From NCBI GenBank assembly GCA_913063435.1, contig CAJXYI010000013.1, forward strand, positions 1-52,661: a DNA stretch of 52,661 bases, read 5' to 3'. Under the pieces are notes generated by a model that was not told where the DNA came from, searched no databases, and saw only the letters and a list, made by a program, of their open reading frames with translations. The stretch is from an uncultured Actinomycetales bacterium (GTDB lineage Bacteria; Actinomycetota; Actinomycetes; S36-B12). The stretch's first letter is position 1, and the number at the start of each line of letters is the position of its first letter. The position numbers and the translations under genes were made by a program. Positions 3,114 through 15,681 of the stretch are shown piece by piece.

Positions 3114-4082
3114 CTACGGAAGCCCGCGGCGGGCGGCGACCACCGCGTCGTATACCTCGCGTCGCGGCACGCCGACTTCACGGGCCACATCCCCGATCGC
3201 TGCGCGCCGGTCGATGCCGGCAGCTTCGGCCGCCTCGACTCGCGCCACCCATTCACCAGGATCACTCGCCACCGCTTGGTCCTCACCACCGGAGATGACG
3301 ACCGTGATCTCCCCGCGGAGTCCGGCATCGGCTCGCTGGCGCACATAGGCGAGATTCCCCCGAATCACCTCTTCATGCGTTTTGGTTAACTCCCGCGCCA
3401 GCACCGCGGACCGATCCGGTCCGAATACCTCGACCATGTCCGCGAGCGCGGCACTGATGCGATGAGGGGATTCGAAGAACACCATCGTGCGCTGTTCACC
3501 TGCCAATGACTGCAGGTGACGACGACGGTCTCCGGGCTTGCGGGGCAGAAACCCTTCGAAGCAGAAGCGATCCACGGCCAGCCCCGAGACGACCAGTGCC
3601 GCCAGCACCGCACTGGGTCCGGGCAGCACCGCCACCTCGATGCCGGCATCCAGGCACGCGCGCACGACGCGATATCCCGGGTCGCTGACCAGAGGCATTC
3701 CCGCGTCGGAGATGACCAGCACATCGATGCCGTCGCGCAGGCTCGACAGCAACACCTCGACGCGACCCGCTTCGGCGCTGTCGTGCAGCGAGATCACCCG
3801 ACCGGCCAATTCAACGCCGAGATCGCTGGCCAGTCGGCGGGCGCGCCGAGTGTCCTCCGCCGCGATGACGCCGGCGGTGGCCAGAGCATCACGCAGCCGG
3901 CTCGAGGCGTCACCAGGATTTCCCAGCGGGGTCGCCGCGAGGATCAGCCGGCCGAACTCAGCCGGATCGCCTACCCCCGACTGTCGGCGATGATCGGTCC
4001 GGGGCTGATCGGTCCGGGGCTGATCGGTCCTGGTCTGATCGGTCCTGGTCTGATCGGCCCGGTGCACGCCCACGTCACCCAT
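3114..4082 (-). CDS. rsmI: 16S rRNA (cytidine(1402)-2'-O)-methyltransferase RsmI, with N-terminal pentapeptide repeats
   Basis: SAM-dependent 2'-O-methylation of C1402 in 16S rRNA. The tetrapyrrole-methylase fold is recognisable from LILAATPLGNPGDAS (res. ~45), SDAGMPLVSDPGY, VLPGPSAVLAAL and FEGFLPRKPGDR. The C-terminal HTH-like tail ends in VYDAVVAARRGLP. The first ~43 residues are atypical: a run of DQTRT/DQPRT pentapeptides encoded by a 15-bp tandem repeat precedes the domain. No good alternative start after the repeat was seen. It is divergent from pmt, and a 32-bp hairpin lies 30 nt upstream of the ATG. The function is secure; the extension is unusual. Confidence 0.94.
   Translation of the reverse strand: MGDVGVHRADQTRTDQTRTDQPRTDQPRTDHRRQSGVGDPAEFGRLILAATPLGNPGDASSRLRDALATAGVIAAEDTRRARRLASDLGVELAGRVISLHDSAEAGRVEVLLSSLRDGIDVLVISDAGMPLVSDPGYRVVRACLDAGIEVAVLPGPSAVLAALVVSGLAVDRFCFEGFLPRKPGDRRRHLQSLAGEQRTMVFFESPHRISAALADMVEVFGPDRSAVLARELTKTHEEVIRGNLAYVRQRADAGLRGEITVVISGGEDQAVASDPGEWVARVEAAEAAGIDRRAAIGDVAREVGVPRREVYDAVVAARRGLP
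3991..4065. repeat. 15-bp minisatellite, five copies, inside rsmI
   Basis: Five adjacent 15-bp units: two TGATCGGTCCGGGGC, two TGATCGGTCCTGGTC and one TGATCGGCCCGGTGC. The unit length is a multiple of three, so copy-number change would keep rsmI in frame. On the minus strand they encode pentapeptides of the D-Q-(T/P)-R-T type. The paired order of variants suggests duplication of adjacent units. Confidence 0.95.
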
Positions 4083-10690: not shown

Positions 10691-10705
10691 GTCCACGCTG
10701 TGGAC
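10691..10705. promoter_or_regulatory. Short palindrome between divergent galU and 5-FCL genes
   Basis: GTCCAC-GCT-GTGGAC, 6-bp arms with a 3-nt spacer, about 40 bp upstream of the galU -10 box and 34 bp before the cyclo-ligase ATG. The position suits an operator shared by the two divergent genes; no regulator is known. Confidence 0.4.
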
Positions 10706-10738
10706 GGGCTCGACTACCCGTGCGGTTCGAAGGGCAGA

Positions 10739-11356
10739 ATGCCTCGGGTGAGCGATGCCCCGGGGAGCAATGTCTTCCAACTACGCCCCTCCACCAAGGC
10801 CGCCAGCCGCAAAAACGCGCGTGCCAAACGGGCGAGGGTCACCACGAACAGAATGGTGTTCGCGCCGCAGGTATATCGGCTCGCCCGCAAGCTCGGCCGG
10901 CGACGCAAGACCGGTGCGCCCCTGCGGGTCGCGGCCTATGCCTCCTACGGCGACGAGCCGCGTACCGATCACCTCATTGCCGAACTACTCACGGGCGGAC
11001 ACGAGGTTCTGCTGCCGCGCATGGCCGAAAGCGGGCTGGCCTGGGTCGATGTGAGCATCGAAGCCGAACCTGAATACGCGGTCAATTCCCAGGGCATCCG
11101 CGAACCGCAGGGTCCCGACGTCGGATTGGCCGGGGTCCATATCGTGCTCGTGCCCGCTCTCGCGGTGACCCGTGCCGGTGATCGCCTCGGCCAGGGCGGG
11201 GGGTTCTATGACCGGGCGCTCGCTGGGGTACCGCGCTTCGCCGATCGCGGGCCGCTGCTCGCTGCGGTGGTGTACGCGCACGAGGTGCTCGACGAACCCA
11301 CCTGGCCGACCGAACCCCACGACATCCGGATGGACACGATCCTCACCGTCGAGTAG
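10739..11356 (+). CDS. 5-formyltetrahydrofolate cyclo-ligase
   Basis: Converts 5-formyl-THF to 5,10-methenyl-THF with ATP, returning the storage form to the folate pool. 205 aa. The ATP-binding GQGGGFYDRAL motif and LVPALAVTRAGDRLG are clear, and the C-terminal HDIRMDTILT matches the family end. The ATG at 10739 follows a GAAGGG Shine-Dalgarno sequence. The basic N-terminus (KAASRKNARAKRAR) replaces the usual K..LR..L..RR helix in a divergent form. Divergent from galU, as in many actinobacteria. Confidence 0.88.
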   Translation: MPRVSDAPGSNVFQLRPSTKAASRKNARAKRARVTTNRMVFAPQVYRLARKLGRRRKTGAPLRVAAYASYGDEPRTDHLIAELLTGGHEVLLPRMAESGLAWVDVSIEAEPEYAVNSQGIREPQGPDVGLAGVHIVLVPALAVTRAGDRLGQGGGFYDRALAGVPRFADRGPLLAAVVYAHEVLDEPTWPTEPHDIRMDTILTVE

Positions 11357-11564: not shown

Positions 11565-11936
11565 TCACGACGACAGCAGGGCGCCGAGTGCGAGTCCGGC
11601 ACTCACGGCAAGCAGACCGGCGATGATCGACACCACGACATTCGTCACCGCAACAGGCATACGCCCGCCCTCGGTGAGGCGCATCGTGTCGTGCGCGAAC
11701 GTCGAATAGGTCGTCAGGGCCCCGCAGTATCCGACGCCCAGCAGAACCAACCACGCACCGGTGACGCTGCCCAGCAGTACCCCGAGCAGGAACGAGCCGA
11801 CGACGTTGGCAACGAGGATTCCATAGGGGAAAGGTGCTGCTATCCGCTGCGCCGCAGCGCGTTCGATCACGTACCGGGTCACCGCACCCGCACCACCGCC
11901 GAGCGCCACGAGGAAGATGTCGAGAAGTGTCTCCAC
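11565..11936 (-). CDS. crcB: CrcB/Fluc fluoride channel subunit (second copy)
   Basis: 123-aa, four-helix Fluc-type protein that exports fluoride passively as a dual-topology dimer. Family signatures are GGGAGAVTRY at the N-terminus, ILVANVVGSFLLG (Asn-containing channel motif) and GYCGALTTYSTF. The GTG at 11936 follows AGGTGG; the long upstream extension of this frame is a shadow of the other copy. Paired genes for two homologues usually make a heterodimer with opposite topologies. The upstream copy lies 79 nt away on the same strand. Confidence 0.9.
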   Translation of the reverse strand: METLLDIFLVALGGGAGAVTRYVIERAAAQRIAAPFPYGILVANVVGSFLLGVLLGSVTGAWLVLLGVGYCGALTTYSTFAHDTMRLTEGGRMPVAVTNVVVSIIAGLLAVSAGLALGALLSS

Positions 11937-12015
11937 TAGACCACCTGCGACTTTGCGAGGGAAACAACGAATTCCACGCCACTGAAAGTTGTCATTTCCC
12001 GCGCGAAATCGACTC

Positions 12016-12423
12016 TCATGCGGAAACTCCCCGCACGCGACCCAACCGCCCGCCGATCCACACTGCGGCCAGGCATAACGCAAGCGTCCCGACCAGATAG
12101 GCACCCGCCACGACCGGCGATGCGTCGCGAGCGAGCACGACCGCATCAGCCGAATATGCCGAGAATGTCGTGAACCCCCCGAGCACGCCGACTCCGAGGA
12201 ACGGGCGAGCAAGCGGCCACCGCAGCGCACCACCGAGTACTCGGGCGACGAGAACGCCGATGAGTAGGCAGCCGACGATGTTGACCAGCAGGGTCGCAAC
12301 GGGCTCGGCATCCAGCAACCCGATCGTGCCTCGCTCGATCAACCAGCGCGCCACCGCACCGATCGCACCCCCGGCCGCAACGGCGAGCACGACCGATGTG
12401 CCTGTCACGGGGCGTTGGTCCAT
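12016..12423 (-). CDS. crcB: CrcB/Fluc fluoride channel subunit (first copy)
   Basis: 135 aa, four predicted helices. Motifs are GGAIGAVARWLIE, LLVNIVGCLLIG and GVLGGFTTFSAYS, the last being the TTFST-like track lining the fluoride pore. It differs from the following copy in charged loop residues, as expected for a heterodimeric pair. I looked for a fluoride riboswitch in the 97 nt upstream and could not form the conserved pattern. The preceding gene on this strand is an ABC permease with no obvious functional link. Confidence 0.9.
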   Translation of the reverse strand: MDQRPVTGTSVVLAVAAGGAIGAVARWLIERGTIGLLDAEPVATLLVNIVGCLLIGVLVARVLGGALRWPLARPFLGVGVLGGFTTFSAYSADAVVLARDASPVVAGAYLVGTLALCLAAVWIGGRLGRVRGVSA

Positions 12424-12520: not shown

Positions 12521-13294
12521 TCAGGCGTCACGTCGGTTGAACAGCACCCACGCCGGGATCAGCACTGCCGCGAGCCAGATCGCTGATACGCCCAGGTGGC
12601 CCCACGCCTCAGCGCCCGTCGTGTTCACTGACGCGATCGCGCCATTGAACGGCAGCACCCAGTCGATCCAGGTCCATTCCTGGAACTGGGCGATCAGCGT
12701 GATGATCGGTTCGACGACTGCTGCACCCACGATCGGGATCAAGATGCCCAGGGGCTGATTTCGGCTCAGGGCGGTGAGCGCCATCGCCACGAGCACGAAG
12801 AAGACCACCACCAGCAAAGCGCGCAGTTGCGCCTGCAATCCGGCGCTGAGCGTCGTCGGATCGGAAGTGCCTCCGATGGCCAGGCCGATGTAGTTTCCCA
12901 GGGCGATCGCAGCGATTGCGATGATCGCCGTTGCCACGGTCACGACGATCACCATGAGCGTCTTCGCCGCGAAGACCGCGTTGCGATGTGGCAGCACCGA
13001 TAGCGTCACCCGGATCAGTCCGTGGCGGTATTCCTGCCCGAACGCCACCGCGCCGATCGTGACGAGCAGCGAACCGAGCAGCAGCACGGTCGCCCCGGAC
13101 AGGCCGAAGGGTGCGAAGTTCTCGCTCCCCGGGCCGCCCGGGCCGGCGGACTGACCGGAGGCGACGAAATCCGATGTGGCCCAGGCGACGAAAAGGGTGA
13201 GGGCCGCCGGCAGGAGGATGCCCAGGGCAACCAGCACCCAGGTGGAGCGCACGGTGATCGTACGCACCCATTCATAGCGAAGTGCGGCGCTCAT
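12521..13294 (-). CDS. ABC-2 type transporter permease
   Basis: 257 aa with about six hydrophobic segments (around residues 20-40, 65-85, 105-130, 145-170, 180-200 and 230-250) and the N-terminal RYEWVRTITVRSTWVL typical of ABC-2 permeases with a cytoplasmic first helix. The ATG overlaps the stop of the ATPase gene (ATGA), so the two form one export system. The substrate is not evident. The C-terminus ends RRDA. Confidence 0.85.
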   Translation of the reverse strand: MSAALRYEWVRTITVRSTWVLVALGILLPAALTLFVAWATSDFVASGQSAGPGGPGSENFAPFGLSGATVLLLGSLLVTIGAVAFGQEYRHGLIRVTLSVLPHRNAVFAAKTLMVIVVTVATAIIAIAAIALGNYIGLAIGGTSDPTTLSAGLQAQLRALLVVVFFVLVAMALTALSRNQPLGILIPIVGAAVVEPIITLIAQFQEWTWIDWVLPFNGAIASVNTTGAEAWGHLGVSAIWLAAVLIPAWVLFNRRDA

Positions 13295-14211
13295 GACGCG
13301 CCACCTTCCGCCGAATCCACGGATTTGAAGGCGAACTGCTGCCCCTCGCCGGTGAGTTCGAAGAACGTGTCCTCCAGGCTCGCGGTGCGCTTGGTCAACT
13401 CATACACCGCGATGCCGTTATCGAAGGCGATCCGCCCGACCGCATCGGTAGTCAGACCATTGATCGCTACACCATCAATGCCCTCCCGCCGCACGGGAAC
13501 CTCGCCGAGCAGACCGGCGAGTCGGTCGGCGTCATCGCAACGCACCAGCACATCGCCGCGCAGCGAAGTCAGTTCGTCGACCGTCCCATCAGCGACGAGT
13601 TTGCCGGCGGCGATCACCACGATGTGATCGGCCATCAGCTGCATCTCACTGAGCAGGTGGCTCGAGACCAGCACGGCCTTGCCCTGAGACGCGTAATGCT
13701 TCAGGAACTGCCGTAACCACTGGATGGATTGCGGATCCAGGCCGTTAGCCGGCTCGTCGAGCATGAGTGCATCGGGATCGGCGAGGATCGCACCGGCTAA
13801 TCCGAGCCGCTGTGCCATGCCGAGGCTGAAACCCTTGGGTCGCTTCTTGGCCACCTCGGCCAATCCCACGATGTCGAGAACCTCGTCGATGCGTGACCCG
13901 GGCAACTTCGCGTCGGTCGCGAGCATGCGCAGGTGATCGCGAGCCGACCGACCGGGCAGGAATGGCCGGGCGTCGAGATGCGTGCCCACAACCTGGCTCG
14001 CGTGGGGATAGGCCTTGAGCGTCTTGCCGTTGTAGAGGGTGGCGCCCTCCCCGCGGTCGAGGCCGAGCATGAGGCGCATCGCGGTGGACTTGCCGGCGCC
14101 GTTGGGTCCGAGGAATCCGGTGACGACCCCGTCGGGAACGTGGAAGGACAGGTCATCCACCGCGCGGGTGGAGCCGAAAGATTTGCCGATGCCCTGAACG
14201 TCGATGGCCAT
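13291..14211 (-). CDS. ABC transporter ATP-binding protein (export, DrrA/CcmA-like)
   Basis: 306-aa ATPase with Walker A GPNGAGKST (~res. 37), a signature loop FSLGMAQRLGLAGAIL in place of canonical LSGGQ, Walker B LMLDEPANGLD and the switch His in VSSHLLSEM. The DrrA-like C-terminal region follows. Pairs with the overlapping permease gene. TAGGGT lies 6 nt before the ATG (minus, 14218-14223), indicating a leaderless transcript start. Similar actinobacterial systems export peptides or lipids; no substrate is inferred. Confidence 0.9.
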   Translation of the reverse strand: MAIDVQGIGKSFGSTRAVDDLSFHVPDGVVTGFLGPNGAGKSTAMRLMLGLDRGEGATLYNGKTLKAYPHASQVVGTHLDARPFLPGRSARDHLRMLATDAKLPGSRIDEVLDIVGLAEVAKKRPKGFSLGMAQRLGLAGAILADPDALMLDEPANGLDPQSIQWLRQFLKHYASQGKAVLVSSHLLSEMQLMADHIVVIAAGKLVADGTVDELTSLRGDVLVRCDDADRLAGLLGEVPVRREGIDGVAINGLTTDAVGRIAFDNGIAVYELTKRTASLEDTFFELTGEGQQFAFKSVDSAEGGAS

Positions 14212-14348
14212 GCCCCGACCCTAGACCCGCTCCGGCCCGTGTTGCCGGATTCGTCCACAGCGGACGACCGATCTCGCTCTTGGGGAGCAGGCGTTCCGTG
14301 GTCGCGTGACGAGCCCTGATGGACGATCCTCACCCCGGTTGCCGTCGA

Positions 14349-14375
14349 TTAGCACTCCCACTCGTCGAGTGCTAA
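14349..14375 (+). promoter_or_regulatory. CIRCE operator (HrcA site) with leaderless -10 for fmdB
   Basis: TTAGCACTC-N9-GAGTGCTAA is a perfect match to the CIRCE consensus bound by the heat-shock repressor HrcA. Its right arm overlaps TAATAT (14373-14378), which is 6 nt before the fmdB GTG. HrcA binding here would block the promoter, and heat stress would release it. Confidence 0.93.
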
Positions 14376-14384
14376 TATTCGCCC

Positions 14385-14777
14385 GTGCCGACCTACTCCT
14401 ACTCCTGCAGGGACTGCGGTGCCCAGCACGACATCGTCCAGTCCATGAGCGACCCCACCTTGACCGAATGCCCCACCTGCGGTGGTGCGATGCGCAAACT
14501 GTTCAACAACGTCGGGGTCGTGTTCAAGGGTTCAGGGTTCTATCGCACCGATTCCCGCGAGAAGTCGGCCACCGCGAGCTCACCGGCTGAGAAGAAGGCC
14601 GACAAGGGCGCGACGACGAGTTCATCGTCCGATTCGGGTTCCTCCAGCAATTCCACGAGCGCCTCGAGCAGTTCGAGCACCTCGAGTAGTTCGAGCAGTT
14701 CTAGCGGTTCGAGTTCGGGCAGCTCAGGTTCGAGTTCGGGCGGCTCGGGTTCGAGCACTCCCGCCAAAACCGCCTGA
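14385..14777 (+). CDS. FmdB-type zinc-ribbon protein with serine-rich tail
   Basis: 130 aa. The first ~55 residues are the FmdB/CxxC_CxxC_SSSS zinc ribbon: PTYSYSCRDCG with one CxxC and TECPTCGGAMRKLF with the second, then GSGFYRTDSR. A ~70-residue low-complexity Ser/Gly tail follows, as in other members. The molecular role of the family is poorly known. The GTG start sits directly after the CIRCE/-10 region, so the mRNA is probably leaderless and under HrcA. In other actinobacteria fmdB neighbours mscL and a SAF gene; here those lie 3.7 kb away. Confidence 0.9.
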   Translation: MPTYSYSCRDCGAQHDIVQSMSDPTLTECPTCGGAMRKLFNNVGVVFKGSGFYRTDSREKSATASSPAEKKADKGATTSSSSDSGSSSNSTSASSSSSTSSSSSSSSGSSSGSSGSSSGGSGSSTPAKTA

Positions 14778-14832
14778 CGCGGCCACCCTTTCCGCGGAAA
14801 CGACCTCCGCGAAGGAGTACTGACCAGTTCGC

Positions 14833-15681
14833 TCAGGCGTTGAGGAACTCCCGGACGTGCCGGTTGAACCGCTCGGGGTTCTCGAAGAACATGAAGTGCG
14901 AGCCGCCGTCCTCAGCCTCGAAAATCACCACGTCAGCATGGGGGTTCTGCGCGGCGATCCAGCGCTGCGATTCGGCAGAGAAAATGCTCGCCTCCGCACC
15001 CACGACAAGCGTCGGGAGGTCGATCTCGGCGATCACATCGCGCCAGTCGTTGAGGCTGTGGTCCCACAGCAGGTCGGCTGCAACGTCACGTGGCATCTTC
15101 AGATTCTCAGAGGCGATCCAGGCCAGATCATCCTCGCTGACGTTCGCGGTGAACATGCCGCGGATGATCTCCTTGTGCCCATCGACAGTGTCGGTGGCCG
15201 ATACGGCGGTGACGAAACCCTCGAGCCCGGCCGCATCAGGGAACAGGCAGCCGTAGGTGACTTTGTCCTCATCGGTCCAGGTCGGCTTGCCGGTCACCAT
15301 CGGTGCCTGGTCGACGAGGATCAACTGCGCAATCCGATGCGGCCCATAGTGATCGAGGTACGCCCAGATCACCGAGACTCCCATCGAATGACCCATGAGG
15401 GTGATGTCATTCAGGTCGAGGTCGTCGAGGAACTCGCGCAGGTCCGCGGCCAACCGTGCGATGCGATATCCGCCCTTCGCGTCGGAGGATTCACCGTGAC
15501 CGCGCAGATCGACGGCATAGACGGTGTGATCGGTCGACAATTCGTCGATCTGATATTTCCATTGCGCCGCGGACTGCGACCATCCCGGCAGCAGCACGAC
15601 CACCGGTCCGGATCCGGCCTTGATGTAGGAAATATGGTCACCATTGGTCAACGTCATGGTGCCGCGCTCGTCGGTGCTCAT
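14833..15681 (-). CDS. Alpha/beta hydrolase
   Basis: 282 aa of the alpha/beta-hydrolase fold. The oxyanion region is VVLLPGWSQSA, DLRGHGES follows, and the nucleophile elbow is GHSMG (Ser ~ residue 99). A late His lies in GGSHFMFFENP. Such proteins cover esterases, lactonases and haloperoxidase-like enzymes, so the substrate is open. The ATG has a GAAGGAG Shine-Dalgarno sequence. It starts 33 nt after the FAD-oxidase stop on the same strand, so the two are probably one operon controlled by the divergent FadR-type regulator. Confidence 0.9.
   Translation of the reverse strand: MSTDERGTMTLTNGDHISYIKAGSGPVVVLLPGWSQSAAQWKYQIDELSTDHTVYAVDLRGHGESSDAKGGYRIARLAADLREFLDDLDLNDITLMGHSMGVSVIWAYLDHYGPHRIAQLILVDQAPMVTGKPTWTDEDKVTYGCLFPDAAGLEGFVTAVSATDTVDGHKEIIRGMFTANVSEDDLAWIASENLKMPRDVAADLLWDHSLNDWRDVIAEIDLPTLVVGAEASIFSAESQRWIAAQNPHADVVIFEAEDGGSHFMFFENPERFNRHVREFLNA

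What the first reader, a model, noticed from the sequence alone, without database searches (positions are those of the whole stretch)
14349..14384. Perfect CIRCE operator on the -10 box of a leaderless fmdB gene
TTAGCACTC-N9-GAGTGCTAA usually precedes groES/groEL or dnaK. Here it controls a lone FmdB-type zinc-ribbon gene, with TAATAT inside the right arm and the GTG 6 nt further. This would place an almost uncharacterised family in the heat-shock regulon.
Basis: partly seen in the sequence, partly recalled or inferred. Interest (0 to 1): 0.55.

Follow-up and report, generated by a model that had tools for sequence, protein, structure and literature searches.

The report
Heat-shock operator controlling a small chaperone
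A classic heat-shock DNA switch sits right on the start of a small zinc-binding chaperone gene; the same control is already known in the tuberculosis bacterium, so this is a well-conserved, mostly ordinary case with an unusually compact promoter.

Summary
A perfect CIRCE (TTAGCACTC-N9-GAGTGCTAA) lies at 14349-14375; TAATAT (14373-14378) shares its last three bases, and the GTG of a 130-aa FmdB-type zinc-ribbon gene follows after 6 nt. It is not chance (0 of 100 shuffles). The genome has hrcA and five more CIRCE places, at groES, groEL2 and hrcA-dnaJ. The claim that this newly places an uncharacterised family in the heat-shock regulon is out of date: Mycobacterium tuberculosis Rv0991c (Ruc), of the same family, is directly repressed by HrcA, heat-induced, and a redox-regulated chaperone (PMC7448276). 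CIRCE-fmdB is widespread in Actinomycetota (36 of 197 class genomes by a tight pattern). Less ordinary is the promoter: among 49 CIRCE-fmdB promoters of the order, a -10-like hexamer sits either just left of the operator (most genera) or fused to its right arm (this genus and a few others), rarely both. Only the window's genus, 3 of 3 with the gene, has also lost the Shine-Dalgarno leader. TSS, HrcA binding and heat response were not measured.

The parts
14349..14375 (.). CIRCE operator (HrcA-binding inverted repeat), perfect arms with 9-base spacer
   Evidence: conserved upstream of fmdB in relatives
14349..14354 (+). possible -35-like hexamer TTAGCA (4 of 6 to TTGACA, 18-bp spacer) inside the left arm; weak
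   Evidence: strict sigma-70 scan found none
14373..14378 (+). -10-like hexamer TAATAT; first three bases are the end of the CIRCE right arm
   Evidence: hexamers of this kind peak at this offset in 15 of 49 order promoters
14385..14385 (+). predicted transcription start = first base of the GTG start codon (leaderless)
   Evidence: 6-nt gap in 3 of 3 genus members with the gene; no Shine-Dalgarno; inferred, not measured
14385..14777 (+). fmdB/ruc-type gene, 130 aa: N-terminal zinc ribbon (C8, C11, C29, C32) and Ser-rich C-terminal tail
   Evidence: PF09723, TIGR02605; Cys positions and tail composition

Best explanation
The site is an HrcA operator that represses the gene of a Ruc/FmdB-family, oxidation-activated chaperone. 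Under normal conditions HrcA binds the CIRCE, which here contains or overlaps the core promoter (TTAGCA in the left arm as a weak -35, TAATAT at the end of the right arm as -10), and so shuts out RNA polymerase. On heat or other proteotoxic stress HrcA loses activity, together with its repression of groES-groEL, groEL2 and hrcA-dnaJ; transcription then starts at the GTG itself and a leaderless mRNA is translated. The protein would hold zinc when reduced and become a holdase that hands clients to DnaK when oxidised. Shown here: the sequence elements, the family match, hrcA, the shared regulon sites and their conservation. Inferred: HrcA binding, transcription start, heat response, chaperone activity (by orthology with M. 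tuberculosis Rv0991c).
For: Perfect CIRCE, 0 of 100 shuffles. hrcA intact in the genome, with a dnaJ-like ORF beside it (by reading). Six CIRCE places with up to 3 mismatches and none for the reversed control; reading the surroundings puts them at fmdB, groES (two), groEL2 (two) and hrcA-dnaJ, the same operon set that PMC8557902 lists as HrcA targets in M. tuberculosis. CIRCE within 5-35 nt of a fmdB start: 35 of 119 order genomes, 36 of 197 class genomes, 14 of 296 phylum genomes, reversed control 0 in each. At up to 150 nt: 49 of 109 order genomes whose FmdB upstream was read, 30 of 38 in the window's family. Cys at 8, 11, 29, 32, as in the C8S,C11S and C29S,C32S mutants of Ruc. 5-FTHF cyclo-ligase gene upstream on the same strand in 56 of 56 named loci where both were found, as in the window (10700-11356). 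Leaderless: -10 to GTG gap of exactly 6 in G000, G334, G342, no Shine-Dalgarno; in 40 other long ORFs of the window TANNNT before candidate starts peaks at gaps of 6-8 (10 of 15 hits over 25 distances).
Against: No measurement of TSS, HrcA binding or heat response exists here. The strict sigma-70 scan finds no promoter; the -35-like hexamer matches 4 of 6 only. Co-occurrence with hrcA is uninformative because hrcA is nearly universal (190 of 197; 112 of 119); one CIRCE-fmdB genome in each set had no hrcA hit (G438 of 36, G408 of 35; both drafts of 94% completeness). CIRCE at fmdB is far from universal: 0 of 35 genomes of family f76 and 0 of 10 of f73, although the 17 f76 and 5 f73 genomes searched have CIRCE-like places elsewhere. 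In M. tuberculosis ruc is also driven by SigH; no SigH-like site was seen in the window's genus (2 of 49 order promoters; consensus recalled).
Confidence: 0.85

Rival explanations
1. HrcA control is real but the mRNA is not leaderless: transcription starts further upstream and the CIRCE is transcribed as a stem-loop in a leader without a Shine-Dalgarno.
For: In most genera of the order a -10-like hexamer lies just left of the CIRCE and the gene has a leader (35 of 49 at offset -5); the window's -10 assignment is a weak consensus match.
Against: The window has GTCGAT at the left position, not CACAAT/CATCAT; TAATNT-N6-GTG geometry is kept in 3 of 3 genus members with the gene; no Shine-Dalgarno.
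Confidence: 0.2
2. The CIRCE serves the divergent ABC transporter genes (13291-14211, minus) rather than, or as well as, fmdB.
For: It lies in the shared intergenic region, 137 nt from that gene's start.
Against: Of 30 order loci given to the search, the ABC gene was found beside fmdB in 9, with one further partial hit, whereas all 30 have the CIRCE at fmdB (they were brought in by it); the operator keeps a close relation to the fmdB start.
Confidence: 0.04
3. The repeat is a fossil or a chance palindrome without a working repressor.
For: fmdB lacks a CIRCE in f76 and f73, so the link can be dispensable.
Against: 0 of 100 shuffles; perfect arms with unlike spacers in three genus members; hrcA present.
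Confidence: 0.03

Closest known systems
M. tuberculosis Rv0991c (Ruc) and its HrcA-repressed promoter
   Same: FmdB-type zinc-ribbon protein with C8, C11, C29, C32 and a hydrophilic tail; direct HrcA target alongside groES, groEL1 and groEL2.
   Different: M. tuberculosis adds SigH, whose site overlaps the HrcA site, and rv0991c heads an operon with rv0990c; here the gene is alone, no SigH-like site was seen, and the CIRCE arm is part of the -10.
Classical CIRCE/HrcA operons (groESL, hrcA-dnaJ, groEL2)
   Same: Same operator; the genome carries them too.
   Different: At groES and groEL2 the sites are tandem pairs with mismatches and lie further from the start; fmdB has one perfect site on the -10.
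Leaderless actinobacterial promoters (TANNNT-N6/7-RTG), known for mycobacteria (recalled; only the titles of such papers were seen, in reference lists)
   Same: Geometry of -10 and start codon.
   Different: Here the -10 is shared with a repressor operator.

Membership tests
CIRCE / HrcA regulon | TTAGCACTC-N9-GAGTGCTAA in the promoter region | tested here: met
   14349-14375, 0 mismatches
CIRCE / HrcA regulon | hrcA in the same genome | tested here: met
   C40:16153-16809, 187 bits
CIRCE / HrcA regulon | HrcA binds the site and represses the gene | not testable with these tools
   needs gel shift and hrcA deletion
FmdB / Ruc family | N-terminal zinc ribbon with two CxxC | tested here: met
   PF09723 and TIGR02605 over their cut-offs; C8, C11, C29, C32
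FmdB / Ruc family | variable hydrophilic, disordered C-terminal tail (7-61 residues in the paper) | tested here: inconclusive
   78-residue tail after residue 52, 38 Ser; longer than the paper's range; disorder not computed
FmdB / Ruc family | oxidation-activated holdase | not testable with these tools
   shown only for M. tuberculosis Ruc
Leaderless promoter | -10 hexamer 6-7 nt before the start codon and no Shine-Dalgarno | tested here: met
   TAATAT-N6-GTG, none of the Shine-Dalgarno words tried
Leaderless promoter | transcript 5' end at the start codon | not testable with these tools
   no RNA data

The most novel reading that the evidence does not exclude
In this branch of Actinomycetota the ruc/fmdB promoter has moved across its operator. 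Most genera place the -10 just left of the CIRCE and keep a Shine-Dalgarno leader; at least two separate lineages of the window's family (g1+g205, g206+g210), and perhaps g232 of another family, use the end of the right arm plus three bases as -10; in the window's genus the leader was also removed, so one 36-bp stretch is operator, core promoter and translation start at once. HrcA would then block closed-complex formation directly, and the chaperone would be made from a leaderless mRNA.
Probability: 0.5. Interest if true: 0.38.

Novelty: new member of a known kind. Interest (0 to 1): 0.24.

Why it matters
It extends HrcA control of the Ruc-type chaperone from M. tuberculosis to much of Actinomycetota, which supports a general chaperone role for this family, and it gives a compact natural series in which a core promoter appears on either side of one conserved operator, useful for asking how operator position sets repression.

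Tried and rejected
Co-occurrence of CIRCE-fmdB with hrcA as a test: rejected as uninformative, since hrcA is nearly universal. SigH-type promoter in the window's genus: not seen (consensus recalled). Sigma-70 and terminator scan of 14200-14900: nothing at its thresholds. Solved structures of relatives: no convincing match (best 6hiv_BK, E 0.0076, to the low-complexity tail). First HrcA tree was discarded because five rows (G302, G311, G299, G324, G352) had very long branches, as from a wrong reading frame; rebuilt with frames chosen by similarity, where the genus g1 itself is not recovered as one clade (G000 joins g205 with support 90/75). AlphaFold was not run: the question is one of regulation. 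Literature: searches for Rv0991c+HrcA, FmdB+CIRCE+HrcA with two of three needed, CIRCE+leaderless+HrcA, FmdB family+heat shock (41), HrcA regulon+Actinobacteria+CIRCE with two of three needed (42), Rv0991c+CIRCE (43), FmdB+HrcA (55), FmdB+zinc ribbon+chaperone (56). No paper in this open-licence library held FmdB together with HrcA (0) or Rv0991c together with CIRCE (0); subscription papers, including the HrcA study that PMC7448276 cites as reference 26, were not seen. PMC4245973 (passages; mycoplasma CIRCE sites) did not bear on the question.

Full report
Observation. The window holds a perfect CIRCE at 14349-14375; allowing three mismatches it is the only match, and none of 100 dinucleotide shuffles has one. 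TAATAT occupies 14373-14378, so its first half is the end of the right arm; six bases later comes GTG (14385) of a 130-codon ORF that ends at 14777. The TAA of the arm is an in-frame stop and no start codon lies between it and the GTG, so GTG is the first possible start; the next Met is residue 21, beyond the first CxxC. The neighbours are a divergent ABC transporter and a convergent alpha/beta hydrolase, so the gene is alone.

What the gene is. The protein passes the cut-offs of PF09723 and TIGR02605. Its four cysteines are at 8, 11, 29 and 32, the positions mutated in M. tuberculosis Ruc as C8S,C11S and C29S,C32S. The primer sequences in PMC7448276, translated and compared by eye, read PTYSYE, RLRKLF and AVGVVFKG, against PTYSYS, AMRKLF and NVGVVFKG here. 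The tail after residue 52 has 38 Ser in 78 residues. A 5-FTHF cyclo-ligase gene lies upstream on the same strand in the window and in 56 of 56 named loci where both genes were found; 57 of the 119 loci showed the ligase and 118 showed FmdB, many loci being cut at 8 kb.

The regulator and the regulon. hrcA is present, and a dnaJ-like ORF follows it (named by reading). The genome has six CIRCE places at up to three mismatches, none with the reversed pattern. By reading the ORFs they lie at fmdB (perfect), groES (two), groEL2 (two) and hrcA. PMC8557902 (passages) lists groEL2, groES-groEL1, rv0991c-rv0990c and hrcA-dnaJ2 as HrcA targets in M. tuberculosis: the same set. PMC7448276 (outline, passages and section 8) reports that HrcA directly represses ruc (Rv0991c), that Ruc rises strongly at 45 C and in an hrcA mutant, that SigH also drives it, that Ruc coordinates zinc, prevents aggregation when oxidised, promotes refolding by DnaKJE and copurifies with DnaK.

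Breadth. A combined pattern (CIRCE core, 5-35 nt, FmdB start) hit 14 of 296 phylum genomes, 36 of 197 class genomes and 35 of 119 order genomes, with no reversed-control hit in any. These counts are lower bounds: leaders over 35 nt and imperfect cores are missed. For 109 of the 119 order genomes (all in which TIGR02605 was found) I read upstream of one FmdB locus per genome: the CIRCE-bearing or best-scoring copy, and the better-scoring reading where two were in hand. 49 have an exact core within 150 nt; by family f1 (the window's) 30 of 38, f77 14 of 16, f74 3 of 8, f72 1 of 1, f75 1 of 1, f73 0 of 10, f76 0 of 35. hrcA occurs in 112 of 119, and 25 of 25 genomes searched by handle (17 of f76, 5 of f73, 3 of f1 without CIRCE at fmdB) have CIRCE-like places elsewhere (a few reversed-control hits occur at that laxer pattern). 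So fmdB has left the regulon, or never joined it, in f76 and f73 while the regulon persists.

Promoter architecture. Over the 49 promoters, hexamers with A at 2, T at 6 and at least 3 matches to TATAAT peak at two offsets from the first base of the CIRCE: -5 (35 genomes, 14 of 19 genera) and +24 (15 genomes, 6 genera); no other offset exceeds 5. One base of each hexamer's test is fixed by the CIRCE itself (T6 on the left, A2 on the right), so the peaks are partly built in; the telling part is that they avoid each other: left only 33, right only 12, both 3, neither 1 (Fisher p 6e-8, not corrected for kinship; this count asks only for A2 and T6). Among the 17 promoters whose right arm ends in TAA, the 12 with T at position 6 lack CACACT on the left and the 5 without it have CACACT. 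The right-type genera are g1 (the window's), g205, g206, g210 and, with CAGAAT, g232. A tree of 40 HrcA proteins, in which g232 is not included, puts g1+g205 and g206+g210 in separate supported groups, the first also holding left-type g207 and the second g200, which has no CIRCE at fmdB; so the state arose or was lost more than once (at least 2 changes forced by well-supported branches). Only g1 has the GTG 6 nt after the hexamer and no Shine-Dalgarno, in 3 of 3 genomes with the gene; a fourth genus member, 87% complete, had no FmdB hit. Of 119 named loci, 116 have a Shine-Dalgarno-like word; the three without are L083 (which carries the same promoter as G334), L107 (Tsukamurella, TAATAT-N6-GTG further from its CIRCE) and L121. 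In 40 long ORFs of the window, fmdB being too short to be among them, TANNNT hexamers before candidate starts gather at gaps of 6-8 nt (10 of 15), so leaderless genes seem usual in this genome.

Taxon. L083, titled Candidatus Nanopelagicales bacterium, carries the same promoter sequence as G334 of the window's genus; the order is in class Actinomycetes.

Limits. Nothing here measures binding, transcription or heat response. Genomes are mostly drafts. Promoter elements are consensus readings, and the strict scan found none. The hrcA test is weak because hrcA is nearly universal: 35 of 36 CIRCE-fmdB class genomes and 34 of 35 order genomes have it, against 190 of 197 and 112 of 119 overall.

Verdict. 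A real HrcA operator on a Ruc/FmdB chaperone gene: a known kind of control, here with a compact, operator-embedded and probably leaderless promoter limited to a small clade.

Noticed in passing
G000 C3:44633 and 44678; C11:33597 and 33632 (L004, L002): groES and groEL2 promoters carry tandem CIRCE pairs at a pitch of 45 and 35 bp; similar pairs recur in other genomes of the order.
   Followed up: partly
families f76 and f73 of the order, e.g. L213, L215: fmdB lacks a CIRCE although hrcA and other CIRCEs persist; in genus g215 many fmdB upstream regions share TTGTCCACAGGTACGAT or close variants instead, of unknown meaning.
   Followed up: partly
L107 (Tsukamurella), match 3431-3486: CIRCE-fmdB with TAATAT-N6-GTG and no Shine-Dalgarno, but the hexamer lies beyond the CIRCE rather than in it: a second leaderless-like arrangement.
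   Followed up: partly
L002 1501-1562: The groEL2 CIRCE pair lies between groEL2 and a divergent ORF that looks like a glycosyltransferase (1521-2573; named by reading only), which might share the operator.
   Followed up: no
window, 40 long ORFs: TANNNT hexamers cluster 6-8 nt before candidate start codons, pointing to many leaderless genes in this genome.
   Followed up: partly
window 11565-12423 (-): Two neighbouring ORFs that look like a pair of CrcB-type fluoride channel subunits (recalled from sequence, not tested).
   Followed up: no
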